This document shows, one piece after another, positions 31,545 to 63,800 of a stretch of DNA of 64,000 nucleotides. The notes below the pieces were generated by a model. That model ran no database searches, was not told the origin of the DNA, and saw nothing but the letters and a program-made list of their open reading frames with translations. The stretch comes from Asparagopsis taxiformis. Its lineage: Eukaryota > Rhodophyta > Florideophyceae > Bonnemaisoniales > Bonnemaisoniaceae. The stretch spans positions 1-64,000 of the forward strand of contig JALQPE010002295.1 of NCBI GenBank assembly GCA_030407315.1, written 5' to 3'. Numbering within the stretch: the stretch's first letter is position 1; every line of letters begins with the position of its first letter. The translations under genes and the position numbers were made by a program.

Positions 31545-32906
31545 TTGCTCGGATTCCTTGCTCAAATACGTGATGGGTTCAGCACACTCGGAGTGTGCGA
31601 AGGAGTGGCAGTACGCGCACTGCACTTCTTTCTCGGAGACGCCCGACGGTTCTACGATTCCCAGTGTACGACTGGCGTGATCACGACTGATCCATCGAAG
31701 AGGTTCTCGTGGCCTCACGTAATCAACGCGTTGATTAAACGATACCTGCAAGACGACGTGCTGCAGGAGGCCTACGAAAAGGTTACGATGATCACGCAGA
31801 ATCCTAACGAGGACGAGAATCAGTACGCTGATAGGCTCGATACTGCCACGCGGGCATGCAACTACGTGTTTACGGATCTACTCCTCGTTCACCACTACGT
31901 GCGTGGTTTACTGCCCTCGACGCGGGCAGCCGTGACGGAACGACTCCGGTCACTCCCCGAACGAGAGAGGAACGACCTCACCGATGTGAGACGACTGGAA
32001 ACGGCCGAAGGAACGACCTTTCGTGCACGTACGGCAGCTGTCGCGTCAACCGCGAAACCGAAAGTGCGGTTTCCGGTGAAGCCTACGTTGGCTATTTCCG
32101 ACCAAGAGTCGAGGAAGTTCGCGGACTACGACGAGTCCGCGTACTTACGAAATGAACGGGCTAACGAGCCCAACTACTACGATGGTAACCCGAACATCCC
32201 CGCGAGGGATGATGACGACGTATCGCTCGCAGCGGTTCACGATGCCGAGAATCTGGAGGCGATACTTTTAACGAATGGGCCGCAGCCCAACGAAAAGAAA
32301 ACGGCAAGCGAAAAGCCGGACGAGCTCGAAGCTCGATTGAACCGTCCATGCGAGGACGTGCCGAAGCTCACGAGCGAGCAGACGCCATTAGCGCATTCCG
32401 TAATCCCGAATGATTACTGGACGCTATCGTGTTGGTCATGCCGCGAAGATGGCCACTCGACGTTTACGTGTCCGCGTTTGACGCCAGATCAACGGATCTT
32501 TTTCGTGTACAAATATTACCTCTTCCACGTGAAGAGCAACCCGCGCCAAGCTGAATATTTCCGCCAACGAATGGCCAAACGGAACCAGGAACGACCTGGT
32601 GAGCGAGGGAACGTGAACCCGCGGAGGTACGGCGCGCCGTCTACGATACTCCGAAATCCCACTCGTGACAGGGGAAGGCCCTTCGACAGGCGCCGCGGCG
32701 ACTTTCGTAATGATCGACGTGATCCTCGCCCGTGGGCGAACGAACGAAATGGCCAGCGTAATGGCCGCAGCGGAGTCTACGTGACGACTTCCGCTGACGA
32801 AACACCACTCGAGGTGGGAACGAGTCACGATGACGAACGAGCTTCGTGGGATCACGATGACGACGAGTCGAACGGCCTCGCGCCGGGAAACGACCAGGCG
32901 ATGTAG
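31545..32906 (+). CDS. gypsy gag, capsid and nucleocapsid part
   Basis: This is the retrotrans-gag region (FLGDARRFYDSQCTTG, then YADRLDTATRACNYVFTDLL), about 450 residues, ending in a nucleocapsid with an intact knuckle CWSCREDGHSTFTC (CX2CX4HX4C, ~32,430-32,472) and an Arg-rich tail. It forms the particle and binds element RNA. It continues from the frame upstream of the 31,481 palindrome. Confidence 0.7.
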   Translation: MLGFLAQIRDGFSTLGVCEGVAVRALHFFLGDARRFYDSQCTTGVITTDPSKRFSWPHVINALIKRYLQDDVLQEAYEKVTMITQNPNEDENQYADRLDTATRACNYVFTDLLLVHHYVRGLLPSTRAAVTERLRSLPERERNDLTDVRRLETAEGTTFRARTAAVASTAKPKVRFPVKPTLAISDQESRKFADYDESAYLRNERANEPNYYDGNPNIPARDDDDVSLAAVHDAENLEAILLTNGPQPNEKKTASEKPDELEARLNRPCEDVPKLTSEQTPLAHSVIPNDYWTLSCWSCREDGHSTFTCPRLTPDQRIFFVYKYYLFHVKSNPRQAEYFRQRMAKRNQERPGERGNVNPRRYGAPSTILRNPTRDRGRPFDRRRGDFRNDRRDPRPWANERNGQRNGRSGVYVTTSADETPLEVGTSHDDERASWDHDDDESNGLAPGNDQAM

Positions 32907-32989
32907 GTCACGAGCCACCCACATCGCCTGAACCCTTACGTGAAAGGGGGACGACTGACATCGATGATTGGTCCTCCGCAGGCTCACTG

Positions 32990-35848
32990 ATGAACGAGAG
33001 TTGCGCAGAACTCGCGGCCGCGAAGGCCAACTCGAGTCACACGATACCCGACGTGGGGGAAGAACCGCAGTCCGACGGGATGAACGAACCTCACACGAAG
33101 AGAAAGTCTTGCAGGCGAGAGAGACGCGCTACCCGGAAGCACGACGCTTCCGAGTGCGAGAAAGCTAAGCACGCGGCTCATACGAAGCGTGTCGACGCAA
33201 AGGAAGCCATACGGGCTCATGCGGTGAAGCGACGAACCGTCAACGAAGACGGAGACCGCGCGCCGGTCAGGACCGAACCATTAGTTCTCGATGGGCACAC
33301 GTGCCTACTTGCTTCGAAGCATTATATCGTGTCCGGAACGATTGGACTAGACCTCAACGTGATGAGGGCGATTACCATCGCGATGGATACGTGCAGCGGC
33401 TACAGCTTGATACGAACAAGTTTGCTACCCTACGACTGGGTTGACCGCTGCCTACGTGACGAAGAGCTACCGAAGCTCGGAGACGCCAACGGGCAACGTT
33501 TGCAAATCGAAGGCGCCATCCTGCTTCCTGTCAGGCTTGGGAACTCGCTGTTCCGCGTCAAGTTCTTCGTAGCCAACACGCTGGCTGTTCCCGTCATAAT
33601 GGGCACGTCGTTCATGACGAAACATGTCGATGCTATACACTGCCGAGCGCAAACAATCGAGCTCCATCGAGGAGACACGATACCTATCATCGCGGAAGGT
33701 GATTCGACGAATCCGTACGAGGAGAGGGAAGAGACAAATCCAAACGTGGAACATCCGAAACTCCGCGTGCGTGACGCGGCCTCGAACCGGCCAAGTTGGA
33801 CGTTCTCCCTTCGCCTGACGAAGTATACGCGTGTACCGGCGATGTCGCAACAGACCGTCAACGTGACGACGGACGCGACCGGACTCGTATTCCTCGAACC
33901 GAAGGCATCGGTACAATTTCGACATGGGCTTCGTATAGCCAACGGAGTGGTCGACGTGGGACCGGGAGAGACGTTCTCCATAATCGTGTCGAACTTCACG
34001 AAGAAGGATCGAGAGTTGTCAAAGGGCGCGACGATTGCGTACGCGGTACACTCCCCGTTGAGAATCGTCCCACTCAAGCGCGAGGGCGGCGAGGCCCTCG
34101 CAAAGATTTTGAACCTACCGCTAGTCGATGCGACGACAAGAACGAACGCTAACGGGTTGGGCGACGAAATGCCCGACCTGCTGGTCAACGAAAAAGGGAA
34201 CGATCCCGCCACGGATTGGCAGTCGACAATCGATTTGTCGCACCTCGCCGACGAGGATTTACAAAAGCGCATCCACGAGATGCTTGCCACACATTCGTCA
34301 ATGTGGACGAGTGGTCGCCTCGGCGAAATCAATGCTACGGAGCATCGAATCGAACTCGAACCAGGCACGCGGCCCATAAGTTCAATGCCCTATCGACAGG
34401 GTCCGGCTCTACGTACGATAGCCGAGGAGCAAATCACGAAGATGCTCAACGAAGGGGTTATCGAACCCGCGTCCAGCGAATGGGCGTCACCAATCGTGTT
34501 GGTGCCGAAGAAGGACGGATCCTTACGTTTCTGTGTCGACTACAGGCGTTTGAACGCGAAAACGATCGCTGATTCGTACCCGCTTCCTCGCATAGAAGAT
34601 TGTCTTGATTCGCTTGGCGAAGCAGCCATATTCACGACACTCGATTGTAACGCCGATTACTGGCAAGTGCCCGTCTCCGCCGAGGACCGTGATAAGACAA
34701 CGTTTACGTCTTTCATGGGAACGTACCGCTACGTGCGAATACCATTCGGGCTACGAAATGCCCCCGCTACGTTTCAGCGGACGTTGGACATAATACTTTC
34801 CGGAGTACGTTGGCAATCGTGCCTTGTCTACTTAGACGACGTAATCGTCTTTTCGAAAGACCTCGAGTCTCACCTGAGTCACGTTGACCAGGTACTTTCC
34901 CTGCTACGCGCAGCAGGGGTAACGTTGAAGCTCGCGAAATGTTCGTTCTTTCAACCGCGAGTTGACTACCTGGGGCACGTGATTACCCCAGGGAAGCTGC
35001 ACGTCGCAGCACGGAACAAGGAAGGCTTTAGTACGGCTACGTTCCCGCGGGATAAGGCGCAATGTAGATCGTTTTTGGGCGCGGCCAACGTTTACCGCCG
35101 TTTCGTAAAGGCGTATGCCGAGATCGCTCGGCCACTCAACACAATGTTGAAGAAGGACGCTTCCCCCGATTGGACGAATCCAACTGACGCAGAAACGAAC
35201 GCGTTAGAAACGTTGAAGACAATATTGGTGTCGCCACCAGTATTGCACCTTCCGAAGGCGGGACGTCCGTTCATGATCGATACCGACGCGTCGGCGTATC
35301 AGCTGGGAGCTACGTTGCTCCAACAGCAGAATGAAGATAAGCCCAACGAATGGGTGCCGATTGGGTACTGGTCGAAGACCCTCAATGAAACCGAACGTGG
35401 TTATTCGGCAACTGAGCGCGAGTGCTACTCCGTAGTTTGGGCGATAACGTCGCTCCGACCCTACGTAGAGGGTCAACGGTTCACCGTACGTACGGACCAC
35501 GAAGCCTTGCGCTGGCTGATGACGTTGACGGACGCGTCCGGTCGACTACTACGATGGAGGCTACGCGTTGCCGAATTCGATTTCGAAGTTACGTACAGGC
35601 CTGGGCGCGTGCACCAGGTACCTAACGCTTTATCACGCGTGATATCTACGTATGACGACGGTCGACCCGTTGACGATGACGTACCCTCGTATGGGGACGC
35701 GGTCCTCGTGACGACTCGCAGTCGGCGACAACCCACACGAAATGGGCAAGGGAGATCTCCCTTGCCCATTTCGTGTGGGTTGTCGTCGTTCGAACGGCGC
35801 CCGCACGAGAGAAGGCAACGAATTCCAGGGGCCCCGATGACCCGTTGA
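32990..35848 (+). CDS. gypsy Pol: protease, reverse transcriptase, RNase H
   Basis: The frame is 952 codons, and the ATG at 32,990 gives MNESCAELAAAKANSS. The protease region has IAMDTCSGYSLIR near 33,375, where the usual D-T/S-G triad reads D-T-C-S-G, so activity is doubtful. RT starts near MLNEGVIEPASSEWASPIVL and has FTTLDCNADYWQVPV and the catalytic YLDDVIVFS (~34,830). RNase H starts at FMIDTDASAYQLGATLL (~35,270). Near 35,726 the frame runs into a perfect 60-bp palindrome, after which it is not RNase-H-like; the real end was probably different. This is the longest intact retroelement frame in the window. Confidence 0.85.
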   Translation: MNESCAELAAAKANSSHTIPDVGEEPQSDGMNEPHTKRKSCRRERRATRKHDASECEKAKHAAHTKRVDAKEAIRAHAVKRRTVNEDGDRAPVRTEPLVLDGHTCLLASKHYIVSGTIGLDLNVMRAITIAMDTCSGYSLIRTSLLPYDWVDRCLRDEELPKLGDANGQRLQIEGAILLPVRLGNSLFRVKFFVANTLAVPVIMGTSFMTKHVDAIHCRAQTIELHRGDTIPIIAEGDSTNPYEEREETNPNVEHPKLRVRDAASNRPSWTFSLRLTKYTRVPAMSQQTVNVTTDATGLVFLEPKASVQFRHGLRIANGVVDVGPGETFSIIVSNFTKKDRELSKGATIAYAVHSPLRIVPLKREGGEALAKILNLPLVDATTRTNANGLGDEMPDLLVNEKGNDPATDWQSTIDLSHLADEDLQKRIHEMLATHSSMWTSGRLGEINATEHRIELEPGTRPISSMPYRQGPALRTIAEEQITKMLNEGVIEPASSEWASPIVLVPKKDGSLRFCVDYRRLNAKTIADSYPLPRIEDCLDSLGEAAIFTTLDCNADYWQVPVSAEDRDKTTFTSFMGTYRYVRIPFGLRNAPATFQRTLDIILSGVRWQSCLVYLDDVIVFSKDLESHLSHVDQVLSLLRAAGVTLKLAKCSFFQPRVDYLGHVITPGKLHVAARNKEGFSTATFPRDKAQCRSFLGAANVYRRFVKAYAEIARPLNTMLKKDASPDWTNPTDAETNALETLKTILVSPPVLHLPKAGRPFMIDTDASAYQLGATLLQQQNEDKPNEWVPIGYWSKTLNETERGYSATERECYSVVWAITSLRPYVEGQRFTVRTDHEALRWLMTLTDASGRLLRWRLRVAEFDFEVTYRPGRVHQVPNALSRVISTYDDGRPVDDDVPSYGDAVLVTTRSRRQPTRNGQGRSPLPISCGLSSFERRPHERRQRIPGAPMTR
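35726..35785. repeat. Perfect 60-bp palindrome at the end of gypsy RNase H
   Basis: Two perfect 30-base arms without spacer, centred on AGATCT at 35,753-35,758. Same length and geometry as the palindrome at 31,481, but unrelated sequence. Confidence 0.9.
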
Positions 35849-40835: not shown

Positions 40836-42060
40836 TCACCGGTTGCGTAATCCGGGCGCACGCCGTGCGTCGGCGACGCAATACTCCGGTCCCAACGCGA
40901 GAGCGCCGCGAGCCTCCGCCGACACGCTGGTGATGGATATGAACGTGTCAGAGCCATCCACCGGTATCGCGCATAGCATTTCGTAATCGGCCAGGAAGTC
41001 CACCGTGGACTCGCGCAGCAGGCACGCGCGCCCGGACACACGACGTTCCACGAACAGCGAACACTCGAGCATCGCTGCGTGTTCGATGTCAACGGCCGTC
41101 AGGAAGCGCTCCTTCACTGCCGCCGGTACGTCCTTCACGGCATCCGTGAAATAATGCACCACGCGAGGTAGAAACGTAGAAGACACGCGGGGATACGGAT
41201 AGGCAGTCACCACGCCTGGCAGCCACGGGAAGTGGTTTTCGCACGGAACGCCGAGCGAAGTCGACGCGTGCGAGACGCGATACTCGTCAGCATCAGCGTA
41301 ACGGAGGGCGACATAGTCGTTGTACGACACGACGCGGTTCGAGATGACGCTTAACGATAAAGTAGTCTTCCAGCGGGCTCGTTGCACGTCGGAGAGTGTC
41401 CGCGGACACACGTACACGGAACTCAAAGAGGTGAACGGCGGTTCCTCGGGCGTTCCCTTCCACAGGTACCCGTCCATGTGGTCTACGTAGATCGCATCGT
41501 TGATATCACGTAGCCACGAGCGGTCACAACGAATGGAGGCCGGTATTTGATAACGAAACGAACCCTCCGGCCCGTCAGCGAAGCATCGCGCGGCTCGCCG
41601 CCCCTCCTCGGCGGTACGCATGTACTCGAGCACCGCGCGTGCATCCAGACGGTCTTTAGCCAACGTGGCCACATCCTCGTCCGTCAAGGCAGCCCGAGGC
41701 AACGCCGCCCACGCGTGGGTCAGGGAACCCAAGTCGAGCGCGACTCCGTCACGAATGGGGATCCCAACAGTTCCCGCAGGAACATCAGATGTCGGCGAGC
41801 TCTGACGAGGAGACTGAGGTGAGACCTCACGACGAGGCTCCCCTGCGTGCGACGCTGCTTCAGCACAACGCGAACGTGCGGCCGCGGCCATCGCAACCAC
41901 CCCACGACCAGAGGGTACGACCTCCGGCATTATAGGCGCTTCCGGACTTGAGGCTGTCGCCGCAGCGTTATCATCAAGAGGGGCAACTGACCTTGTAGCC
42001 TCGACAGGCGGAATGGAAGCCATCGGGTGAGACGACGAGGCAGCAGCCTGTGGAGCAACG
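40836..42060 (-). pseudogene. Unknown gene, 3' part, split by the 9.9-kb transposon
   Basis: About 400 codons of open frame, Ala/Pro/Ser-rich at first and then a compact domain (FRYQIPASIRCDRSWLRDIN, VPCENHFPWLPGVVTAYPYP, VERRVSGRACLLRESTVDF). No family is recognised. Its 5' part lies at 51,968-52,138. Removing the transposon and one copy of the 4-bp duplication puts the two parts back in frame. The composition matches the gypsy element, so it may be a gag-like gene of another element. It ends near 40,836 or, in another frame, near 40,720 (RGNRSDYFGGLGGGN). Confidence 0.55.
42057..42060. other. Target-site duplication AACG, left copy
   Basis: AACG flanks the left inverted repeat; the identical AACG follows the right one at 51,968-51,971. 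Using this 4-base duplication restores the reading frame of the interrupted gene. Confidence 0.8.
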
Positions 42061-43027
42061 AACTCGAGTTTCGACTGGATCAGAATTTTGGACAGAGGAA
42101 CAGAATAGAGTCGATCTAATATTTTCTCGGAAAGAGATGAAAAATGATTGACTGACAGCTGTCCCAACATGCTACCGCTAAAGATTGTTAGTCAGCCATG
42201 GCTATAGACAGCTGTCCTTTTCGGCAACCACCACTGTCATGTTTCTGAAATTCCTCAGGAGTACGAAATACATTTCCGGGACAGCTGTCTCTTAGGACAT
42301 CACATGGGCAATCATCACGTTGAGAATTGCTATGATACCAACGTGGCATTCTTCACCACTCTGAACTTAGTAATTCCCAACGAGACTGGTGTAGGATCGG
42401 GTGTGACTAACTACCTGGTTGGATTTCACCACAGCCACAATGTTTACAGCGGAGTTCCAAAGTAATTTGGCTAGAGATGAATATAAATTAATTTATTCGA
42501 ATGACATAGATCGCTCAGAAGCTGACTTCTGGATCCAGATTGGTCAACTCAGCTCCAAATAGAAAAACTGCGACGAAATACAAAAAGTCTCTGAAAACTC
42601 AGAGGACAGCTGTCTTATGAACAGTTTTGGTATTGGTCATTTGCTGTGGAAACTCGATCGGGTGCCACAGGGTTGATCCATCCATCAAATCAGACCCTTT
42701 GCTTCACATTCGATTGAAGCGGCCATTGTAATGTTCATGCTCACATTCCTGTACGGAGACAATGAGATTCACCTCTTTGCAAAGGATTCAAGCTAGATCA
42801 TTAACCACAATGCGAGCGATAATACGCCAGAGAGAAATTCATCGAGTTGACGTTGCATATTAGAACTCATTCGCCCTGCATATCAATATGGGTGTACGTA
42901 TTCGGCAGTTACATTCAGTTCTATACGTAATGTTCTGGTGAAGAAATGTCCAGCAAATTTCTACATATGCGTCTCGTACGAACGGTTGCTACCGTAGCAG
43001 TGTGACACTGCTCAGTGAAACCATGAC
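42061..43027. repeat. Left terminal inverted repeat
   Basis: Near-identical reverse complement of 51,022-51,967. It contains four copies of the palindrome GACAGCTGTC at 42,154, 42,207, 42,280 and 42,605. The inner border is near GTCTCGTACGAACGGTTGCT, after which the arms differ by a small insertion and then diverge. Confidence 0.9.
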
Positions 43028-43219
43028 CTTTTTGGCACTGACCATTTCAATGTGCAATACTAATAGACCAACTAGTTGTGAGCAGTCCTGAGAATATTAT
43101 CAATGGTGAATTTATTCTCCGCGATGTTGTGGATCTTCCAGGCAAACTGAATAATCTTCAACTAGCCATTATCATCGGCTTCAAAATTCAAAGCTCCCTC
43201 ACATCCAACGTCTCCCCTC

Positions 43220-45629
43220 TTACCCGACCTCTTGAACTACATGGTTTCGCAGAATCTTTTGAACCGTTGCAGTCAGTTCATTCTTTCTCGTTAGCCTTTC
43301 AAACTCTACGATTACAGAGTCTGTGGAGATAAGATCTCGCCAGGGCTTTCTGGAGCTGGGAGAGCTTTGCAAATAAGCTGGTGTATATTTGCAGATGTAA
43401 GGGTTCTTTCCCGGTGACGGCTGGTACCAATGAACGTCCACCTTGCATGCAACCCCTTCTCTGTTCTGAACAATCTCGTAGACTTTTCCAATCCAGAAGG
43501 GGCATGCTGCAGAAAAGTTTGCTGGACGAACAGATACAAATCTATTGATTTCGTATCCGTAGCGGTTTAGAACTGATACGGAATCTATACTGATATTTTC
43601 CTCATCATCAGAATCATTTTTGTCAGGATTACATGTTACAGATTTGCGCAGTCTATTGCGATGCATCCCACGAGCTTCCACACAGTTCGACAGATTCCAA
43701 TGAAATTCTTCCTCTCTTGAAGTGTATACATTTGCTGCGAGGTTACGCAGGTCTGCCATTTTTTGGCTGCAATTGATACGTCCCTCCTCTGATCTGAAAC
43801 GTTGTTCAACTTCTTCCTCTCCATCGGGGCAAGTAATGACAGTTTGAGGTGTCTTTTGTAAGTCTGGAGCGAAGAACAGGAAGCAATTGAAAGTACCCTT
43901 TTCATGCACATCAAGTGGAACCCATGGATCATCGGAGAGTATCTTCACATGACAAATTGTCTTGTATTTTCCTCCTGTCTCCAACGTTCCACCTGAAGCC
44001 CGGTTGAATCTGAAATACCGGAAGTGAGTAAACTTCGGAAGTTTCGTGATGTTCTTCTCTTGCTTGCACAGTCCTGAGAAATTCACGACGTTTCGAATAT
44101 GATTTACAATGGGTGGTGGTGTGAAAGACGCTCTCAGCTGTCTGTGGAGATCCGTTAACGTGATGGCATCATATGACCTCAATCTCCGTGACGTACAACT
44201 GAAGCTCTGGTCTATATCTATGTGAGTATGACCAACCGGGAGGAACGAGGCGTGGATCTCCTCGAAGACGTTCCAAGCCACAAGTGACTCGAGAAAAGAG
44301 AGAAAGTATATGTTCTTGTTCTCTCTCGAACAGTTATCAAGCTGAATGTACAACGTAGACGGGAGTCTTCCGTTTAAAGAACGATCATTGATAAAACGGT
44401 GCAGGCATTCAATTATGTGGTTGGCTCCCGTCTCGAATTCTTCAGTCATAGTATAAAGATACAGTCTCTTCTCCGGTCCATGCTCAAGAAGACCAACAAG
44501 TTTAACTTTCAATGCCCTCCCTCGAGTACTTTTTGTATTAACGGCAAAGTGGGGGAGCCCGAAAGCGGACTGATCTGCCCCATCGATACAAATAGAACAG
44601 TAACTCCCTGGTTGCAATATTGCATCTTCTCTCTTCCGCTGATATTCCCTCCTCTCTCGAGCTACCATGTCAACATGTCTTTTCCGTCGCATAAGAAGAT
44701 CTTTTGTAGACATTGATGGTCGCGAATCTCGCAACAATGCAGCTCGGAGCTCTTCGCAGACGTCACACTTGGCAAACCGCGAGACTTTTCGCACCTTTAT
44801 CGAGTAGCACCAAGTCTTCCATACTTTATAGAAGTAAGAAGGAGAAGGTGGGACTGTAAGGTGGAGCAACGCGTGTTCTTCCATAAACAATATACACTTC
44901 CGACTTCTTGAAGAATGGGAGATGCTGTTCCGATTTATCCGGCATCTTGCCCGCAGTCGTCCTTGCAAGCCTCTCGAGGAACGTTATGATTGAGTCACGA
45001 CCACATGATTCGACTTCGTGGGTACCGGAAACTGAAAGTTCTTTTGACAAACTGGCAGGAGTCTGCTTGATAGAACTCTGTAAATCACGGGAGAAGCCGA
45101 ATGCTTTGCTCAAAAAAGAAGCACAGACTCGTTTCCCATCAAAGGAAAAATATTTCCTACTATTGTTCTCTTCGGATCGTAGCATTGCCCGTAGCCCATT
45201 TCGTCTTTCGTTGTTGTCCACCTTCGCAAAATAAGTAATCTTAGCGGATAAAAATGAAACGTTTGCCCTTTTAAAACACTGTTTGGTCTTACAGCACTTC
45301 ACCAATTTCAGATCTTTGCGTATAATGATATGGGCTGCATTGATCCGTCGTTTCCTGAGGGATGCTACAGCATGAGAGCATGGTATACGAGGACTGAATT
45401 CGTATTGTCCCCTGGGAGAATATCCAAAGATATCTTTGTCCTTGTTTACTTCATCCTCAGAAGTGTTCAAGTTTTCAAGCCCGCATCGGTTCTTTGTGTC
45501 ACCTATTGAAGGGAAATGGCCTTCAAAATTACTCAGGTCGAAATGGGCTGGGGATTTCAGTCTATCCACACGATTTTCTGCCATGATTGAGTCCTCATTT
45601 GACGTTCCCGATGATATAGACATCTTCAT
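43220..45629 (-). pseudogene. DUF7869-like transposase/integrase with one frame break
   Basis: The probable RNase-H-fold enzyme that moves the element. The N-terminal half (frame ending near 44,880) has a Cys-containing region (VKCCKTKQCFKRANV) and the helical stretch FDGKRVCASFLSKAFGFSRD. The C-terminal half (582 codons) has RFAKCDVCEELR, then candidate catalytic acids in SICIDGADQSAFGLPHF (~44,580), IQLDNCSRENKN (~44,330) and GHTHIDIDQSFSC (~44,215). It ends in a basic/aromatic domain. This layout matches proteins annotated DUF7869 in many eukaryotes, to my knowledge. The two halves are joined by a one-base shift near 44,880 (VYIVYG to FMEEHALLHL). The exact catalytic residues are inference. 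Confidence 0.65.
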
Positions 45630-47806
45630 CTACGCGAAAGTACCAAAGGAATGGCTACAGCTTTTGAAGAGCTGCATTGAAAAGATCAGAAGTTGATGTC
45701 ACTAGCAGGCTCACTGAAATACTCATTCCAGTTAGGCTGTGGAAAGGACTTCACGATATTATCGACAGGGTGGCGCAGAAAGGACATCCATCAATCGAGA
45801 TTGACTCTTGGCAACTTGTCAACCGTCTTCATGTTTCACTGGAATTTGGATCATAGATGTAATTTCTATCCGTTAATTCTTCCGCTCTCCACGCTTCTCA
45901 CACGTTGTGTGATGAAAAATCATGGCCTTCAGTGACCAACTGGTGACGATAGACAATTGACACGTAACGAAATACTTTCAAAGACATCTGTTCAGTGCAG
46001 AAATATTCCATAAACTGCAAGAACCTTTGGGGCTTGTCGGGACTACTGCACCTATTCTTCAATATTCATATTGCGAATAGCCCGGGCCTGTATCGTATGA
46101 AAGTGAAGGCCAAACATCGAAAAGCTGTATTCTTCATGAGAGGAACTATTTTAGGAAAACATTTGGATATAATAGACTGACGTGTCTATGAGATTCTAAT
46201 TTTGGTGGCCCTGGGCGATCTGTATACTTCTCTGGCGATTACAGAAAAATAATTTATTTTTTGGGGAGATCACCGTGTCAAACCAAGTCCTCGTATTGGT
46301 AGATACTGATATTCGAATATAGATCCTACAAAGAGGAACTTCTCACTTTTCTCTGATACAACCAGCGTAGAAAAAGAGAATAAATTTAATTGAAGTAAAG
46401 CCACGTACGTTGAAAGAGAAATTCCTTCGTCACATGAGCGAATTCATCCACATTTGAACAAACCTGCATAGCCAGATATGCTTTCCACGCGTACCTTGTT
46501 CACCGACGATATTTCCTTATGAGCGGAATACATGCATTCGAGAAATCTGCAACTCACCCTATATACCTGTTTCCTGAAGGAAAGATAATCCGCGAGAAAG
46601 CCATAAATCGAGGACACTTGTCTTGTTTCATAAACATTTATGTAGTCAATGCACTCTGGTCAAGGATCCTTATCCCCATGAAGTGTCAGTTTCTATTCTG
46701 TGCTGCTGAAATGAATTCCTTTCGTCATAGAGTCTCAGATTTGCAGTGGATCCATTGCACTTCAAGGAGGATAGTATGATATATTCACACTTACATCAAA
46801 CGTTTACATATAGAAGCCGGGCGATTGTGGCACGAAAAGATACTCACAGAAGCTTCACATATTAGGGCCAGAAAAGCTGGATTGACATGTTATTGTAGTT
46901 TATTTCTCCTGTCAATCAAACGGAATCATGAATCGCATAAGATGCCAGTTGACATTGTTGTGAGATAGGTCATATCTGGCTCAAGGACAATTTCGCTCGT
47001 TACCGGCGGCGGCTAGGAATTTTTTGTACAGGTGTAATTTTGTGTGATAGTATGATCAGCCAAAAGAGATTCCTCATTGTGTACAGCTATACAAAACTCT
47101 ATAGAGTACTGTTTCAGTCACTCGAAATTATCCGTGGATCATGGCAATCTGCAGCTTTTCATGAGGTGAAACGCAGAGAAAATAGATCGAGAAATGTGGA
47201 AATGACTTTTACACATCCATGACAACACTCCACTTTCCTCTACAGCTAGCAAATTGCGGTCGGCTAGAATACACCTGGGTGCTAAGAGCTGTCTTGTTGG
47301 GAGTTTCAGAGCCCTGATCAAAACAAAGCATTATATGAACGATATGATCACTTACTTTTTTGTCATGATCCATCCAAGTGGCACGTGTACGAGTAAGGCT
47401 TTGCGATACGGCTTCCACTCTGGACGTGTTTCAATGTCCATCTCATATAGATGTCATTCATCACCATATCGAATTTCTGTAGACTGCATCAAATTACGAT
47501 TGACTGAGCCCAGAAGTACCAACCGATCTAGCTATACCGATCGCGATCAATTACCTGGTGAGCTGTTTACGCGTCTCTCGTGCCGTATACGTGGCCTTCA
47601 TGGTCTAAATGTTTCAATATCACATTCCATCATAGTTTCAATCGAAAACGCTTGAAACTTTCGCGCAAGAGTCTAACAGGCTACAGTGTTACAACCAGGG
47701 TTTTCTTGCTACCAACGAGAGGGCGCTTGTTGGTTTCATATGAGACTCTAAATTACTTCTATCCGTCTCTGAGAACATCTTCCTGAGCCCTTGAATCCAT
47801 TATCGT
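45630..47806. other. Spacer between the two divergent transposon genes
   Basis: 2.2 kb, AT-rich, no convincing coding frame. It should contain the divergent promoters; short unrecognised exons cannot be excluded. Confidence 0.4.
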
Positions 47807-48001
47807 ATGGATCGATACGTACGAAGATCAAGCCGCGGTTTACGGAGTTCGAGAACCAATTCGGACGGTTCAAAAGCCGATCACTCAAGAATTAATTCTA
47901 CATCTACTCCCGATGTATCAATGTCGTCATCGTAGACCAGGTTTGCAGAAGTCATCGATGGATCGATCAATACTTCGGTTGATCCATTGTGTTGTGTTCC
48001 G

Positions 48002-50709
48002 ATGACTAACATCCGAAGACTTTCCCGTTCTGGTATCAATCGTCTGAAGCATTTATTTCACACAACTGGGTTCATCTCAGGATCAGACTTGGCAATAGTG
48101 ATGCCTCTGACAGGTGCACATCGCCACTACATCGCATCACATTTTAGAAGTATTGGACTCAGTACTGATGAGGTAAAGGAAAAAGTCGATTCCAAAGACA
48201 GGTGGTATGGTGTAATCGACGGAATGCATCGATACTGTGCAATCACGGAGATGATGAAAGAGGACTCTAGACGCTGGGAAGGATTCCAGTGGCCTGTAAC
48301 AATGCTGCGAGGGGGTTTCTCTTTGCAGACTCTGAAACAACTCGCACGGGTACAGAATGCAAAACATTGCGATTCATTCTACATTGAACCAACTTTCTTT
48401 GACATGTTATCAGGACTGCGAGAAGAATATGATCGCATTAAGTCCCATAGAGGTTCAAAGAAAATAACTAGCGCTGAGGTTTCTGCCGCTTACGACGGTG
48501 CATCTCATGCAAAAGAAAGCACTATCAAACAAACAGCTGCTACAGCTGTACGACTGGATCATTCCGTAATCAAAGCGATAGGCGAAGTAATGAATGAGGA
48601 GCATCCTGAGCTAGCTGCATCCTGCGTGAACCCAACTCTGAATCCATCTAACAAAGAGGATGTGCAGTCAAAAGTGGACTGCCGTGTTTATCGGAAGTTC
48701 ATAAACATAACTTCTTTGAAGCAAGCGACTGTGTTCATGAAAGCAGAAGAAAAGGAAGGAAGAAATGTTCAAGTTAATACTATCTACAGGCTACGGGAAG
48801 TTTGCAAGCTGAACAACTTCAAGCCTGTACAGCATTCTATAGTTGCAGAACAGTATATCAAAGCAACAAAAGCTCTGAAAGAAGCTCGCAAATTTGAGAT
48901 ATTCCTAGAGTCAACAACGTGGCCTACTGACATGGCAGCAATTCAAACGAACATGCTTCGCGGTACAAAGCTCGACAGTGAAGTGGAGGAAAATGAAGGG
49001 AACGAGACCAAAATTCTTCCTTTCCTGAAAGACATCTACTACAAACTATATCCAGCCTCCGCTCCCGTGAAAATGGCAAAGTTTGAAGCACAATTTTCGT
49101 CCAATTCCGTTATGAGATGTGGTGGCCCTGGGAGAGATTCCTCAGACCAGGATGATGCCTCAGCAACAGTTCCAGTTGTTGAACCGTCTGAAGTACGTGA
49201 GATTCCAGATATACAATTCATTGAAGATCCGGCTGATCAGAATGTTGTCCATGCGAGAAACAAGGAAGCAGCAAACAGCACTGCTGACTGCAGTTCACCT
49301 CAGGGAAAAAAAGAGGTTCCAGGAAACGGGGAGAAGCGAAAGAGACACAATATGGAGAACGATACAAGTGACATGCAGCACACAGAGACCTCGGAACGTT
49401 TGGAAACTAGACAAGAAGCAGCCGAAATGAGTCCTCCAGCGAGTCATTCACCACATTACCATCTCAAAGACAAACATATTTTTCCTTACCAGATGTCCTG
49501 GCAAGAGTTTGACAGAAGCGTTCGTAACGCAGATGATGCACTTTACGATATGTTGCTCACGGATCCTCCTTATGGTTTGGATCCAAATGCATCTGGCGCT
49601 GGTTCCAGTTTCACCGACAAATTAGACGACGAGGAGATGGCATCATTTGCGAAGTTTGCCAGCAGAACTATCAAGCATGGAGGATATGTTTTAATTTTCA
49701 CTTCAGTACGATATATGCAAAAGTGGATTGGGGCTCTCCGAAACGAGGGTTTCCGGGCCATGAGCCATGTATACACGATTGTCAAAAGCCCTGAACGTGT
49801 CCAGTATCACCGACTTTCTTCATTTCCCCAAAACCTATGTGAATATGGGGTAGTAGCTCGGAAGCTTGGATCTCATCCACAGCAGTTTCAGCCTGACTTT
49901 AGCAGTCCTTTTCACAGGCTCCGATGCAAGTACCCTCGAAGGTTTTCCTCTGTAATCGAGGTACCAGTTACAAACAACAAGCTGAAGCACCCTGGCAGAA
50001 AAACTCCAGTAAGGGTGGAGGAAAAAATACAGATCTGCTTGTTGAGCTTTTAACGACATTCTGTCCTGAAAACGGCTCCGTACTCGATGCGTATGCAGGA
50101 ACAATGACCACCGCCCTTGCATGTTTGGAAACCGGTCGCTCGTGTGTATGCATAGAAAAGGATCCAGAGTGCTTCAGACTTGCTCATGCAAGGCTCCATA
50201 GCAGAATAATTTCAATTAACACTGCAATAGATGAGGGAAATGGGAAAGATGCCGAAAGAAGGCATTTGATAGGGCGAGAATGTCCCCCTTTAAAGAAACA
50301 GAAGCAAGGAGAAGTCACAAGACAATCTTCTCCAGATGGAGAAAATGTTCTATCTCAGACTCCAGAAGACCCATCAATAGACAGCTGTGCTCATCTCTGT
50401 ATATCTGGGAAAGCAAGACTGTACGTCGACAAAGAAATTGTTGGGTATGCGGAGCTAGCTCTACCTGCACCTGGTGAGAGTGGTAACGTCAGGAGAGTCT
50501 TACACAACCATAACCTGGCAGAATTTTCCCGAGATGGAGAGTGTCTCGTCGTTGTGTGGCGCGTCAACATTGATTCTGATAAGGGTTCGCTACCCTATCC
50601 TTATGATGTACCTGGAGTGGAAACTTCTCCGAAAACTCTAGCAGATATGAGAGAAAGCTTCTATTGCTGGGATGCCAAAAAGATGGCAATGGTAGATGGT
50701 ACTAGTTGA
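48002..50709 (+). CDS. ParB-like domain fused to a beta-class DNA methyltransferase
   Basis: The first ATG in the long frame is 48,002 (MTNIRRLSRSGINRLKHLF). The same frame is open upstream to a TAG at 47,933, and beyond that back to an ATG at 47,807. Domains: a ParB/sulfiredoxin-like fold with VIDGMHRYCAI (~48,215), a helical middle, a charged linker (~49,130-49,430), then a DNA methyltransferase with catalytic LLTDPPYGL (~49,560, motif IV) followed by the SAM-binding VLDAYAGTMTTALACLETG (~50,080, motif I). Motif IV before motif I is the beta-class order of N6-adenine or N4-cytosine enzymes. An unrecognised domain follows (CLVVVWRVNIDSDKG) to 50,709. One base is missing near 49,922, between the catalytic and SAM-binding parts. 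It could mark the element's own DNA or regulate transposition; that is inference. Confidence 0.8.
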
Positions 50710-51021
50710 TGTGAAATACGGAGCACAGATCAAACTAGTATATCACTGATCTATCACATACGTACAACTCAGATCTATCTGGTCATGCATGACGATTACA
50801 TGTAATCAACGGTTTTTGATAGGGGGTATCTCAGGTTCTTCACACAGGATAATCTGAGACACGTAGCAAGAACATGTCGAGGTAGTTCTCCAGTACACTG
50901 GAATTCGGCTTCTCGGCGTTCCCATCCTTAGAAAAGATTACTATACTTAGAATGTTAGCAATTCCATGCAGGACATATTGCATGTATGAAACAACTGTTA
51001 CACAGCTAAATATGGGCATGG

Positions 51022-51967
51022 CCTTACTGAGCAGTGTAGCAACCGTTCGTACGAGACGCATATGTAGAAATTTGCTGGACATTTCTTCACCAGAACATTA
51101 CGTATAGAACTGAATGTAACTGCCGAATACGTACACCCATATTGATATGCAGGGCGAATGAGTTCTAATATGCAACGTCAACTCGATGAATTTCTCTCTG
51201 GCGTATTATCGCTCGCATTGTGGTTAATGATCTAGCTTGAATCCTTTGCAAAGAGGCGAATCTCATTGTCTCCGTACAGGAATGTGAGCATGAACATTAC
51301 AATGGCCGCTTCAATCGAATGTGAAGCAAAGGGTCTGATTTGATGGATGGATCAACCCTGTGGCACCCGATCGAGTTTCCACAGCAAATGACCAATACCA
51401 AAACTGTTCATAAGACAGCTGTCCTCTGAGTTTTCAGAGACTTTTTGTATTTCGTCGCAGTTTTTCTATTTGGAGCTGAGTTGACCAATCTGGATCCAGA
51501 AGTCAGCTTCTGAGCGATCTATGTCATTCGAATAAATTAATTTATATTCATCTCTAGCCAAATTACTTTGGAACTCCGCTGTAAACATTGTGGCTGTGGT
51601 GAAATCCAACCAGGTAGTTAGTCACACCCGATCCTACACCAGTCTCGTTGGGAATTACTAAGTTCAGAGTGGTGAAGAATGCCACGTTGGTATCATAGCA
51701 ATTCTCAACGTGATGATTGCCCATGTGATGTCCTAAGAGACAGCTGTCCCGGAAATGTATTTCGTACTCCTGAGGAATTTCAGAAACATGACAGTGGTGG
51801 TTGCCGAAAAGGACAGCTGTCTATAGCCATGGCTGACTAACAATCTTTAGCGGTAGCATGTTGGGACAGCTGTCAGTCAATCATTTTTCATCTCTTTCCG
51901 AGAAAATATTAGATCGACTCTATTCTGTTCCTCTGTCCAAAATTCTGATCCAGTCGAAACTCGAGTT
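51022..51967. repeat. Right terminal inverted repeat
   Basis: Reverse complement of the left repeat. GACAGCTGTC copies lie at 51,414, 51,739, 51,812 and 51,865, mirroring the left arm. The terminal ten bases AACTCGAGTT are themselves palindromic. Confidence 0.9.
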
Positions 51968-52138
51968 AACGGCTTGGACCGCCCCAACGGACGGGGCGGG
52001 CGCGACGGACGCTTCCGTCGCTGGTGGCGCACCGACCCTGGCGAGGGAGGGAGCGCCCAGCGAAGGGTTCCTCGCTCCACCTCCAGCAGAGCCGGCGGGC
52101 CGCGGAGTGTTGGTATCGGTACTACGCGTAGTAACCAT
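51968..52138 (-). pseudogene. Unknown gene, 5' part, split by the transposon (includes right target duplication)
   Basis: The ATG at 52,136-52,138 (minus) starts MVTTRSTDTNTPRPAG, an Ala/Pro/Ser-rich N-terminus ending at the inverted repeat. It continues in frame at 42,056 when one AACG copy and the transposon are removed. See the 40,836-42,060 part. Confidence 0.6.
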
Positions 52139-52450
52139 CGTGGTTAGTTCGTTCGCGGCGAATACGAAGAGTGCAACGACCACGAAGATGAGGGCCACGC
52201 TGGCAAGACGAAACAAGAGAACGAAGAGAGCGGACGCGACCAGGAGTACCCAGCGGGGGAAAAGGGGGATCCAGAAAGGAAGAGGATGCGATCCAATGCA
52301 ACGGTAAGTGAGCGAAACGGAAAGGCGACGGCCTAGGCGATGACGATGATGGAAGAGGAAGCGACGATCGCTACCACGCTTGAGCCGCGGCTTAAATATC
52401 CCTCTGACGACCGTTGTCGTAATGCCCGCTGGCACAAGATTCACGAGATC
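52139..52450. other. Upstream flank of the interrupted gene
   Basis: GC-rich sequence up to the left edge of element A. It probably holds the 5' leader of the minus-strand gene. No other gene is seen. Confidence 0.4.
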
Positions 52451-52680
52451 GTCTGTGTTCTCGGAAATGGACGCGGAAGTCCGCAACCTCTAGTACACCT
52501 AGTATTACTAGGCGGACGTCCATGTTCTCCAGTATTTTTGGATGTCCGCCTAGAACCGGACGCCCATGCGGTCTAGTACGTCTAGTATTACTAGGGCGAC
52601 ATTCATTGTTTCTAGTACCACGGATGTCCCCCTCGGGATGGACTTCCGCCATGTCTATGTCCACCTAGGACGGGCGCCGG
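52451..52680. repeat. Left-end inverted-repeat cluster of copy A
   Basis: It contains CCTAGTA-T-TACTAGG, and GGCGGACGTCCA paired with TGGATGTCCGCC across a 16-base loop, plus several GGACGTCC-like palindromes. The same cluster opens copy B at 57,556-57,785. Dense palindromes at an element end suggest protein-binding or processing sites. Confidence 0.6.
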
Positions 52681-54900: not shown

Positions 54901-57555
54901 CTAGCCGTCGGAATATTGTTCTTCCTCTTCGTCCCCACTATAATCAGGATCTCCCGGCAGAATAACCATCAACGGGACATCACTAATTGTGTAGGCTATA
55001 GGCTTGCGTTCTGGCTTGCGTTCTGTCGTCTTCATCCGCATGATTCCGAGCTGCCCTGTCTTCGGCCTACGATCTTTCTTGACCGGGATGGGAACAACTG
55101 TCTTGTGGCGAACATTGACAGGTGCCGGTTGACTTTGCCTGGCAGACCGGCGCGGAGCATTGGGGATTACTTCTTCTTCGAATCCCAACCGCCTGATGAA
55201 ACCAAACGAAACATTGTCGGGAATCGGATACGACGCATTCCTGAAATACGTGTGATACCTCGTTGTCGTGTGTGACACAACTCTGTCGACATGACCTGCC
55301 CCGGCGTGTTGTACATGGCCGTGACCGATGAAGACTGAACGTGGTGGAACGATTACCTTCTTCAGCTTCATCGTCTTGGCGTACATATCTAATTCTAGCG
55401 CTTTGGAAAAGACGTACTTGTGGGACCCTGGACACACCTAGATAGGGAATGGGTCATCTCCGTTGGCAATAACAAAGTAACCCGGAAGTTGATCTTTGCG
55501 GTCGCGAGGAGGAACAGGGAAATCATTGTGTGGGACCTGCCGAGGACACCCCTTTCCCGTTATCAAAAACCGTCCCCCAGATGCCGGCATGACAAGTTTT
55601 TCTCCCGGTAAACCGCACTCCTCCAGCCCTATCAGCCGGACAAGGATTCCCAACCACACATCCAGCAGGGCTCGTCGCGTCACAAACTTGAACCGGTCGG
55701 TACGCGACTCGTCGTTCTCGGCATAGTCAACCAGGCAGTGGCGCGTAGACGTGAAGCGAGCCCTCCCCTCATTCCGGTTCTTCTCATCTGTTTCATCGTC
55801 CCCTGTATTGACAATGGGACTCCACAGCTGCCGGTTCCCAGGGTCCTTGTGCACCTGCTCCCCCTCCCATGTTCCCAAGAAGTACCGAAACAATTCCTGG
55901 TTAGGAATTTCTTCCATGAGACCCAAGTCAAATGGGAACTTGTCCGACGCATCGAGGTAGCTTACATCCGCGAAATTGTGCATCACCGTATACCCTCGCT
56001 CGTTGATTTCCGTTCGGCAATTGTGGAAGTACGCCATACCAGTGCCGGCCTCATACGAATCCTTCCAGCTTGTAGACATTCGCGCAACCTGGGCGAAGTC
56101 CAGCCTCGAGGGTAGAAACGTCGATGTAGGCTCACACATCGCCTTGGCAGCCATCTTCCACGCTTCGAAAAACATCGGATAGATGGTGTCGATCTCCAAA
56201 ACAAGATGACGAGCCCGATGTTGTTCCGGAATATGCAGCCCCTCAAACACAGGGTCCATCGCCACTTGCTTCAAATACCTCACCTCTCTGCCCTCCTCAT
56301 CGATTTCCACACTCTCCAATAACAACCTGAGCTCAATCGGGGGCAGACAGCCAACCCTCACCGATGCGATGACGTCCGCGGGACGCTGCGCCAGATGATG
56401 CCCTTCGGCTCGGTCTTTGACTTGGAAATCTTCAGGAAGAGATGGCATACGGTCGTCGAACAGGAGGTCGTGTTCAGAAGGAGAGTCACGAACGATGTAA
56501 CCGTCTTCATCGACTTCCACTCCTTCCGGAACAGTGAATGTAATTGTCACTTCGCGGACCCCCTTGCTTTTGACATGGCCCTCATCTGCACTGTTGTTTT
56601 CTTCCTCGTCCGAAACGTTATGGACAGATTCTTGGTTGGAGGGAGTCGCACCAGCACGTTGGTTATCTTGGGGGACAATCTCAACGGCAGAATCGGGGGA
56701 ACGGGCGGAGTCTTCGTCACCCTCATCACCGGAAACAGTGGCTTGTTGTTGATCGGTGGGTTTATCAACAACGGCCTGCTCTTCTTCCCCGGCGGATTGT
56801 TGTACCACAACCGGCTCTTCTTCGTCGAGGCGTGTGCTCCCCGTCGAGCGAAGTCGCTGTGAACGGCGGCGGATGCCATGCGAAGCAGGCTCATGTTCGA
56901 CATTCCGCTGCTTCTTGTGAGTGAGTCTCACATTGGCAGCAGAAGGGCGGCGTTTGCGTCGAGCCTTAGTCTTCTTCTTCAATGTCGGATTGAAAAACTC
57001 TTTCAAGTTCGTTTCCAAATCCTGTAAACGCGTGGTTCTCCGTCGCATTCGAACCTCACTGCTCCGGTCGTCCCCTCTATACATTGCAATGGCATTGGTG
57101 AGATGCCATTGCAACTCCTTCGGCTGCTTAACCGACCCAATTGCCATCTCTGTGCTCAGAAATGACTTGCGCATAATACTCTTTGGGCGCCCATACGCAG
57201 CGTACAGAGAATTTGCGATTGCAGTCACGCGACGGACGTATGTATAGAAGTCGTTCACGTCAAAGCGTCCATCCGGACGTCCACCATGAGCAGGGTTCAA
57301 GTACTCCGAAAGACCACGCAAAACGAAGACAAAGTTTTCTTCCAGCAACTCGCGCACTATCTTGTGGTCCAGGTGCGTTATCCCAATCTCGTTGCGGCGC
57401 TCGGAATTGTTCAGCTCACGCAACACTTCGTCGAGAACAGGATGCTTTAGCGTTGCTATAGCCAAACGCGTCCACCGCCGGCCGTGTTCGTTGAATTCAT
57501 CATCCCCATGAACTGCGCCTCGAACAATGTTCGGATGACATCAGACTCACGCAAC
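54901..57555 (-). pseudogene. ParB/2OG-oxygenase gene of copy A, truncated with nonsense and frameshift
   Basis: Same protein as in copy B but lacking the N-terminal ParB part, because the copy ends at 57,555. A single-base loss near 57,480 and a TAG at 55,438-55,440 (where copy B has TGG for Trp) break it. The oxygenase HxD site (QVPHNDF, ~55,520) lies before the stop; the distal His (GHVQHAGAGH) and Arg (TTRYHTYF) lie after it. At the position where copy B is frameshifted (~57,177), copy A is intact. The acidic C-terminus ends EEEEQYSDG. Confidence 0.7.
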
Positions 57556-60888: not shown

Positions 60889-63800
60889 CTAGCCGTCGGA
60901 AAACTGTTCTTCCTCTTCGTCCTCACTATGATAGTGAACTAGATATCCAGGTTGTCCCGGCAGAAGAGGCACTACCGGGGCCACACTCGGTGTGTGCATT
61001 ACATCCTTGCGAGGTTCTGTCGTCTTCATCCGCATCATTCGGAGCTGCCCTGTCTTCGGCCTACCATCTTTCTTGACCGGGATGGGAACAACTGTCTTGT
61101 GGCGAACATTGACAGGTGCCGGTTGACTTTGCCTTGCAGACCGGCGCGGAGCATTGGCGATGACTTCTTCTTCGAATCCCAACCGCCTGATGAAACCAAA
61201 CGAAACATTGTCGGGAATCGGATACGACGCATTCCTGAAATACGTGTGATACCTCGTTGTCGTGTGTGACACAACTCTGTCGACATGCCCTGCCCCGGCA
61301 TGTTGTACATGGCCGTGACCGATGAAGACTGAACGTGGCGGAACGATTACCTTCTTCAGCTTCATCGTCTTGGCGTACATATCTAATTCCAGCGCTTTGG
61401 AAAAGACGTACTTGTGGGACCCTGGACACACCCAGATAGGGAATGGGTCATCTCCGTTGGCAATAACAAAGTAACCCGGAAGTTGATCTTTGCGGTCGCG
61501 AGGAGGAACAGGGAAATCATTGTGTGGGACCTGCCGAGGACACCCCTTTCCCGTTATCAAAAACCGTCCCCCAGATGCCGGCATGACAAGTTTTTCTCCC
61601 GGTAAACCGCACTCCTCCAGCCCTATCAGCCGGACAAGGATTCCCAACCACACATCCAGTAGGGCTCGCCGCGTCACAAACTTGAACCGGTCGATATGCG
61701 TCTCGTCGTTCTCTGCATAGTCAACCAGGCACTGGCGTGTAGACGTGAAGCGAGCCCTCCCCTCATTCCGGTTCTTCTCATCTGTTTCATCGTCCCCTGT
61801 ATTGACAATGGGACTCCACAGCTGCCGGTTCCCAGGGTCCTTGTGCACCTGCTCCCCCTCCCATGTTCCCAAGAAGTACCGAAACAATTCCTGGTTAGGA
61901 ATTTCTTCCATGAGACCCAAGTCAAAGGGGAACTTGTCCGACGCATCGAGGTAGCTTACATCCGCGAAATTGTGCATCACCGTATACCCTCGCTCGTTGA
62001 TTTCCGTTCGGCAATTGTGGAAGTACGCCATACCAGTGCCGGCCTCATACGAATCCTTCCAGCTTGTAGACATTCGCGCAACCTGAGCGAAGTCCAGCCT
62101 CGAGGGTAGAAACGTCGATGTAGGCTCACACATCGCCTTGGCAGCCATCTTCCACGCTGCGAAGAACATCGGATAGACGTGATCGATTTCGAATAGCACA
62201 CGAGCCCGATGTTCTTCCGGAATATGCAGCCCCTCAAACACAGGGTCCATCGCCACTTGCTTCAAATACCTCACCTCTCTGCCCTCCTCATCGATTTCCA
62301 CACTCTCCAATAACAACCTGAGCTCAATCGGGGGCAGACAGCCAACCCTCACCGATGCGATGACATCCGCGGGACGCTGCGCCAGATGATGCCCTTCGGC
62401 TCGGTCTTCGAAATCGTCAGGAAGAGACGGCATACGGTCGTCGAAGAGGAGGTCGTCTTCAGAAGGAGAGTCACGAACGATGTAACCGTCTTCATCGACT
62501 TCCACTCCTTCCGGAACAGTGAATGTAATTGTCACTTCGCGGACCCCCTTGCTTTCGACTTGGCCCTCGTCTGCACCCTGTTTGTCTTCCTCGTCCGAAG
62601 CGGTATGGACAGATTCTTGGTTGGAGGGAGTCGCACCAGCACGTTGGTTATCTTGGGGGACAATCTCAACGGCAGAATCGGGGGAACGGGCGGAGTCTTC
62701 GTCAACCTCATCACCGGAAGCAGTGGCTTGTTGTTGATCGGTGGGTTTATCAACAACGGCCTGCTCTTCTTCCCCGGCGGATTGTTGTACCACAACCGGC
62801 TCTTCTTCCTCGAGGCGTGTGCTCCCCGTCGAGCGAAGTCGCTGTGAACGGCGGCGGATGCCATGCGAAGCAGGCTCATGTTCGACATTCCGCTGCTTCT
62901 TGTGAGTGAGTCTCACATTGGCAGCAGAAGGGCGGCGTTTGCGTCGAGCCTTAGTCTTCTTCTTCAATGTCGGATTGAAAAACTCTTTCAAGTTCGTTTC
63001 CAAATCCTGTAAACGCGTGGTTCTCCGTCGCATTCGAACCTCACTGCTCCGGTCGTCCCCTCTATACATTGCAATGGCATTGGTGAGATGCCATTGCAAC
63101 TCCTTCGGCTGCTTAACCGACCCAATTGCCATCTCTGTGCTCAGAAATGACTTGCGCATAATACTCTTGGGCGCCCAAACGCAGCGTACAGAGAATTTGC
63201 TATTGCAGTCACGCGACGGACGTATGTATAAAAGTCGTTCACGTCAAAGCGTCCATCCGGACGTCCGCCATGAGCAGGGTTCAAGTACTCCGAAAGACCA
63301 CGCAAGACGAAGACAAAGTTTTCTTCCAGCAACTCGCGCACTATCTTGTGGTCCAGGTGCGTTATCCCAATCTCGTTGCGGCGCTCGGAATTGTTCAGCT
63401 CACGCAACACGTCGTCGAGAACAGGATGCTTCAGCGTTGCTATAGCCAAACGCGTCCACCGCCGAGCCGTGTTCGTCGAATTCATCATCCCCATGAACTG
63501 CGCCTCGAACAATGTTCGGATGACATCAGACTCACGCAAGTCGCCAGCGTTTTCCACGTTGTTTGCAACAGCAATCGTACGGATGAACTGCTGGATGGAC
63601 GACAAGATTCGAACCAGGGAGCGCTCCGTCAGTTGCGTCCCAGTCGTATGGTTCGACTCTGCACTCTTGTGGATGATCTCATGAGGCTGGAGATCACTGT
63701 CGTCCTTGCGGCGAAGGTAGTACACATCCAGAGGCTGAGTAACCCAGCGCAAGCGGTTTGCCTCCTGTGGCAGCTTGGTTCTGTGCATACGGGTGAGGCG

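What the first reader, a model, noticed from the sequence alone, without database searches (positions are those of the whole stretch)
42061..51967. Eukaryotic DNA transposon carrying its own ParB-methyltransferase fusion
A structurally complete element (TIRs, 4-bp duplication) pairs a DUF7869-like transposase with a ParB/beta-class DNA methyltransferase. ParB-methyltransferase fusions are familiar from bacterial phages and mobile elements, but I know of no described eukaryotic cut-and-paste element built this way. The methylase could mark the element's ends for transposition, protect it, or silence or unsilence it.
Basis: partly seen in the sequence, partly recalled or inferred. Interest (0 to 1): 0.88.

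Follow-up and report, generated by a model that had tools for sequence, protein, structure and literature searches.

The report
Red-alga transposon carrying its own methylase
This is a DNA transposon, most likely of a red alga, that carries a predicted cut-and-paste transposase and a predicted bacterial-type DNA methylase; the 11 related families looked at in the same genome all carry both genes, so the methylase is likely a working part of the transposon and not a passenger.

Summary
42061-51967 is a 9,907-bp element with 932-bp inverted repeats (one mismatch) and an AACG target duplication; the uninterrupted site occurs 44 times elsewhere in the same genome. It carries two head-to-head genes: a DUF7869 protein (predicted RNase H-like transposase core plus BAH-like domain) and a ParB-like/beta-class DNA methyltransferase. 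Both genes of this copy are broken.

The novelty claim does not hold as written: ParB-methyltransferase genes in algal DNA transposons, including a brown-algal Sola-1 element with the gene on the opposite strand, are in print.

New here: the 141-Mb assembly (phycobilisome genes, so most likely a red alga) holds at least 136 such methyltransferase genes on 134 contigs. Five DUF7869 families chosen because no methyltransferase match had been listed near them all carry it; so do the six families reached the other way (11 of 11, two with a broken or remnant transposase beside it). Both proteins are under similar purifying constraint, their distances mirror each other, and one domain occurs on either partner. 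So the methyltransferase looks like a core gene, not a one-time capture. That it marks the element's own DNA is predicted, not shown.

The parts
42057..42060 (.). target-site duplication AACG, left
   Evidence: sequence; uninterrupted site found 44 times in own genome
42061..42992 (+). left terminal inverted repeat, terminus AACTCGAGTTTCGACTGGATCAGAATT
42154..42614 (.). four copies of the palindrome GACAGCTGTC (starts 42154, 42207, 42280, 42605); candidate protein-binding sites
   Evidence: all 8 copies in the 64-kb window lie in the two inverted repeats; 0 of 200 shuffles reach four copies of one 8-mer palindrome. Function not tested, and not repeated in the other families' repeats looked at
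43220..45629 (-). transposase gene (DUF7869), frame broken near 44885; relative P0011 is intact, 803 aa
43982..44521 (-). DUF7869 domain, the predicted catalytic core; DGADQ 44561-44584 (start of the motif DGADQSAF) lies just outside, LDNCSRENKN 44312-44341, GHTHIDIDQ 44207-44233
   Evidence: predicted RNase H-like fold
43259..43573 (-). predicted BAH-like chromatin-reader domain (residues 687-791 of P0011)
   Evidence: coordinates converted by hand from P0011
47807..50709 (+). ParB-like/methyltransferase gene; TAG at 47933-47935 and frame break near 50022; relative P0001 is intact, 968 aa
48218..48232 (+). ParB-like box DGMHR
49562..49573 (+). methyltransferase motif IV, DPPY
50086..50103 (+). 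methyltransferase motif I, DAYAGT (after motif IV: beta-class order)
50386..50700 (+). C-terminal domain that also occurs at the N-terminus of three DUF7869 transposases
51036..51967 (-). right terminal inverted repeat
51968..51971 (.). target-site duplication AACG, right

Best explanation
The element is a two-gene DNA transposon with 932-bp inverted repeats and a 4-bp target duplication; its DUF7869 protein is predicted to be the DD(D/E) transposase, and its ParB-like/beta-class enzyme likely methylates adenine N6 or cytosine N4 in the element's own ends as a standing part of the transposition cycle. Shown: the inverted repeats, the duplication and the uninterrupted site; the two head-to-head genes; the same pair in 11 of 11 families examined in this genome; similar constraint on both proteins. 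Predicted from models and motifs: the RNase H-like core, a BAH-like chromatin-reader domain on the transposase, the class of the methyltransferase. Inferred, untested: the ParB-like half brings the enzyme to sites in the inverted repeats (in this family perhaps the GACAGCTGTC palindromes), the methyl mark tells transposon ends from host DNA or keeps them open, and the transposase, which may read histone marks through its BAH-like domain, acts on the marked ends. The window copy is broken in both genes and would need enzymes from other copies to move.
Confidence: 0.5

Rival explanations
1. The methyltransferase is a mobile-element counter-silencing or self-expression factor: its mark keeps host silencing off the element but it is not needed for the transposition reaction itself.
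For: Same anatomy and constraint data. Methylase kept intact where the neighbouring transposase is broken: C125. Forty-five near-identical copies of the C384-type gene, most without stops, show a prolific family.
Against: The head-to-head layout, mirrored distances and the domain shared with some transposases point to closer work with the transposase, though none of these excludes this rival.
Confidence: 0.25
2. The methyltransferase limits the element: methylated ends are poor substrates, so transposition is tied to freshly replicated (half-methylated) DNA or is self-repressed, as Dam does for some bacterial insertion sequences (recalled).
For: Explains long-term retention and constraint equally well; palindromic repeated sites in this family's ends.
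Against: High copy numbers of families with an intact gene do not suggest strong self-restraint.
Confidence: 0.15
3. It is a passenger gene caught once and carried along, with no role for the transposon.
For: Bacterial-type enzymes are captured by eukaryotic elements; accessory genes are common in giant algal transposons (PMC12477816, passages).
Against: 11 of 11 families carry it; open frames of about 960-1050 aa in families with saturated synonymous sites.
Confidence: 0.04
4. The frame breaks in the window are assembly errors and this copy is active.
For: One break lies in a run of six A; the two inverted repeats differ at only one of 932 positions, as expected of a recent insertion.
Against: There is also an in-frame TAG, and other copies of the same family carry lesions too.
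Confidence: 0.1

Closest known systems
Sola1-1_Ec32 of Ectocarpus (PMC12477816, passages seen)
   Same: A DNA transposon with a ParB-like + N4/N6 methyltransferase gene (1104 aa there, 968 aa in P0001) on the strand opposite the transposase.
   Different: 21.5 kb there, 9.9 kb here; described there as an accessory gene in one family. Here it is found in 11 of 11 DUF7869 families. Whether DUF7869 is the Sola-1 transposase could not be tested: no Sola-1 sequence was at hand.
Green and red algal transposons with similar proteins (Iyer 2011; Petroll 2025 on Bostrychia), known only through the citing sentence and reference list of PMC12477816; neither paper is held
   Same: ParB-like/methyltransferase proteins in algal transposons; the host here is also most likely a red alga.
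   Different: Their transposase types and layouts could not be compared.
Beta-class bacterial methyltransferases (M1.HpyAVI, CcrM, M.BceJIV) and phage enzymes of phrog_67
   Same: Motif IV before motif I; predicted fold.
   Different: No phage record matched over 80% of P0001; the 20 listed of 232 cover only the methyltransferase part.
KDZ transposons with TET/JBP genes in fungi (recalled; title seen in a reference list)
   Same: Transposons associated with a DNA-modifying enzyme.
   Different: Different transposase superfamily and an oxygenase, not a methyltransferase.
Bdelloid rotifer N4-cytosine methyltransferase (PDB 8s9m-8s9o)
   Different: Host gene, not carried by a transposon (recalled).

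Membership tests
Sola superfamily (Sola-1) | 4-bp target-site duplication | tested here: met
   AACG with 44 uninterrupted sites; TCGT and CCGG in two other families. The 4-bp length is in print for Sola2 (PMC3627910); for Sola-1 it is recalled. Other superfamilies also make 4-bp duplications (recalled).
Sola superfamily (Sola-1) | Sola-1 transposase sequence | not testable with these tools
   No Sola-1 protein was available; papers 10.1093/molbev/msp013 and 10.1073/pnas.1104208108 are not held; no paper in the library holds 'DUF7869'.
EnSpm/CACTA | termini beginning CACTA/CACTG | tested here: not met
   Termini begin AACTC in three families; the CACTA feature is recalled.
DD(D/E) transposases | RNase H-like fold | tested here: met
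DD(D/E) transposases | three acidic catalytic residues | tested here: inconclusive
   D350, G/H-T-H-x-D-x-D at 467-475 invariant and D432 nearly invariant in 59 sequences; which of the later acids is the third was not settled.
Beta-class N6A/N4C DNA methyltransferase | DPPY-type motif IV before motif I, matching fold | tested here: met
   Pfam N6_N4_Mtase E 1.3e-16 for P0001. Exceptions P0009, P0010, P0134.
Beta-class N6A/N4C DNA methyltransferase | methylation activity and base specificity | not testable with these tools
   needs biochemistry or modification calls
ParB family proper | match to Pfam's ParB N-terminal domain | tested here: not met
   Not among the families listed at E<=1 for 13 relatives; DndB and GmrSD_N weakly.
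ParB-like superfamily | DGxHR-type box and ParB/DndB-like fold | tested here: inconclusive
   Box present in most members, DGYHS/DGRHV/DGEHS in P0009, P0010, P0134; the model of this half is of low confidence. That DndB and GmrSD_N belong with ParB is recalled.
BAH domain | BAH fold | tested here: inconclusive

The most novel reading that the evidence does not exclude
DUF7869 transposons are a superfamily whose transposition machinery is itself an epigenetic read-write system: a bacterial-type ParB-like enzyme writes 6mA or 4mC on the element's ends, perhaps spreading from palindromic sites as ParB does, and a BAH-bearing transposase reads chromatin and acts only on self-marked DNA. The methyltransferase would be as obligatory as the transposase, in red algae and in other lineages.
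Probability: 0.3. Interest if true: 0.87.

Novelty: new variant of a known kind. Interest (0 to 1): 0.64.

Why it matters
If the methyltransferase is an obligatory partner of the transposase, then this is a group of eukaryotic transposons that carries its own DNA-marking enzyme as standard equipment. It would give a concrete place to look for 6mA or 4mC in eukaryotic nuclei, a disputed subject, with a clear prediction: marks over these elements' ends. It also changes the reading of the published cases from accessory gene to core gene, and puts a likely chromatin-reading domain on the partner transposase.

Tried and rejected
Rejected: (1) one-time capture or independent insert: methyltransferase sequence is present in 4 of 4 other copies with internal sequence and in 11 of 11 families. 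(2) That many DUF7869 families lack the gene: after only 38 of 150 DUF7869 loci were near a listed methyltransferase, but five families outside the list all carried a more diverged one; the shortfall came at least partly from capped, identity-limited lists. (3) An intron as the cause of the frame breaks in the window: the relative P0001 is one open frame through the place. (4) A viral or prokaryotic carrier: no DUF7869 relative in viral contigs or in GTDB contigs.

Led nowhere: the same search with the methyltransferase alignment (alignment not conserved enough); a wider repeated palindrome in other families' inverted repeats; a ParB fold from the P0001 model (searches list only the methyltransferase part among the rows shown); target duplications for C816 and C125; literature on DUF7869 (none), Sola with BAH (none), ParB with adenine methyltransferase, transposable elements and algae (none); a genome-wide search with the ParB-like/oxygenase-like neighbour protein (not completed).

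Rows dropped or limits: one search listed 120 of 182 proteins; score only the best candidates, so counts are lower bounds and near-identical copies on different contigs may be haplotypes or assembly duplicates. In one search, 144 pieces were merged into 136 genes. In one search two proteins (C2530, C100) were only partial frames. The 11 families were chosen by me, not at random.

Full report
THE ELEMENT. The element is 42061-51967, 9,907 bp, with inverted repeats of 932 bp that differ at one position (42771). It is flanked by AACG on both sides. The flanks joined with one AACG are found 44 times in the same genome with one or two mismatches, control 0: the element sits in one copy of a repeated sequence, and the duplication is real. 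The window is contig C2169 of a 141-Mb, 3,156-contig assembly. Thirteen phycobilisome matches, 11 of them on one contig, and ten light-harvesting-protein matches make the host most likely a red alga; other lineages with phycobiliproteins are not excluded.

THE TWO GENES. On the minus strand lies a DUF7869 gene (Pfam E 6.2e-52), on the plus strand a ParB-like/methyltransferase gene; their starts are about 2.2 kb apart and face away from each other. Close relatives are single open frames of 803 aa (P0011, 95% identity) and 968 aa (P0001, 94%). Against these the window copy is broken: a stop at 47933 and a frame break near 50022 in the methyltransferase, a frame break near 44885 in the transposase. 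Since the inverted repeats are almost identical, the copy may have moved in already broken form, with enzymes supplied by others; this is inference, and sequencing error is not excluded for the homopolymer break.

COPIES OF THE SAME FAMILY. A search with the inverted repeat gave 15 matches on 10 contigs. Of the nine other contigs, eight were read. C578 is a full-length copy, 98.7% identical, with both genes in the same layout; C279, C2142 and C1832 hold parts of both; C1736 and C894 (same flank) and C676 and C2537 (same flank) hold only terminal pieces. C1764 was not fetched. No copy with internal sequence lacks methyltransferase sequence.

OTHER FAMILIES. P0001 gives 49 matches on 47 contigs in the own genome, many in open frames of about 960-1050 aa. 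Five of these families were fetched (C16, C150, C816, C104, C125) and all have a DUF7869 gene beside the methyltransferase: intact and head-to-head in C16; head-to-head in two or more frames in C150 and C816; broken into seven frames in C125; and in C104 a head-to-head deletion remnant plus an intact 939-aa DUF7869 gene downstream. The converse test was stronger. Five DUF7869 families that had no listed methyltransferase nearby (C384, C643, C417, then C2104 and C2034) were fetched, and 5 of 5 carry a more diverged ParB-like/methyltransferase gene. Searches with two of these gave 46 and 49 further matches. Together this makes at least 136 methyltransferase genes on 134 contigs, and 88 of 150 scored DUF7869 loci with a listed methyltransferase within 8 kb. 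All lists are capped, and identical copies may be haplotypes or assembly duplicates.

STRUCTURE OF OTHER FAMILIES. C1689 shows TCGT and C150 shows CCGG as 4-bp duplications next to termini AACTC...GAGTT (read by eye from the printed ends). The three families' termini align as AACTC, then TTT, then CAGAAT. C16, a copy of the C1689 family, is cut short on one side. No duplication was found for C816 and C125, and no inverted repeat for C104.

CONSTRAINT AND CO-EVOLUTION. Between families synonymous sites are saturated while non-synonymous differences are 0.29-0.51 for the methyltransferase; in the ten family pairs that share both proteins the methyltransferase changes slightly faster than the transposase. 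Among copies within one family the few differences show no constraint, as expected of recent copies. Pairwise distances of the two proteins across eight families correlate at 0.949, reached in 4 of 20,000 permutations; four of the eight pairs come from outside contigs matched by equal contig length and source (8751, 8109, 7926 and 7243 nt), which is inference, and the first two also have own-genome counterparts at 93-94%. The window family was represented by P0001 and P0011, which lie on different contigs.

PALINDROMES. GACAGCTGTC occurs four times in each inverted repeat and nowhere else in the 64-kb window; no shuffle of 200 had four copies of one 8-base palindrome. It is a candidate binding or methylation site for this family only; the other families' repeats that were looked at have no such set.

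WHAT IS KNOWN. [quoted passage not shown] The element type is therefore not unheard of. What the present data add is that in this genome the gene is found in every DUF7869 family examined, is constrained about as strongly as the transposase, and shares a domain with some transposases, which argues for a core gene. Whether DUF7869 is the Sola-1 transposase could not be tested.

HOW IT LIKELY WORKS. Most likely the ParB-like enzyme marks the element's ends and the transposase works with marked ends. Counter-silencing and self-limitation are live rivals. None of this has been observed.

Noticed in passing
window 54901-57465 and 60889-63986, minus strand: Two tandem copies (about 95% identical) of a long protein with a ParB-like DGLHR box (63837-63851) and a PHND...H pattern that recalls 2-oxoglutarate dioxygenases; no Pfam match at E<=1. 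A ParB-like/oxygenase-like protein next to a ParB-like/methyltransferase transposon would be worth a fold prediction.
   Followed up: partly
P0009, P0010, P0134 (outside relatives): Methyltransferase relatives with changed motif IV (EPPS, EPPS, NPPD) and a changed ParB-like box; possibly inactive enzymes kept for DNA binding.
   Followed up: no
L026 (C104:2700-12600) and contigs C192, C1579, C1667, C1782, C1910, C2267, C90, C1984, C1985: A family with a second, same-strand DUF7869 gene downstream of the methyltransferase on 10 of 10 contigs; in C104, the one read, a head-to-head DUF7869 remnant with its middle deleted is also there.
   Followed up: partly
L053 and L054 methyltransferase C-termini: A cysteine/histidine-rich tail in place of the usual C-terminal domain; weak Znf_SCAND3 match in L054 (E 0.046).
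   Followed up: no
window 19405-25041, minus strand: A tandem row of related membrane-protein-like open frames; they look bestrophin-like (recalled, no family search run).
   Followed up: no
window 40836-42060 and 51968-52486: The element sits in a repeated host sequence of higher GC, of which 44 uninterrupted copies of the site exist; the host repeat was not identified.
   Followed up: partly
window 31545-35848: Retrotransposon-like frames: Retrotrans_gag at 31545-32906 (E 3.2e-05) followed by a long polyprotein-like frame.
   Followed up: no
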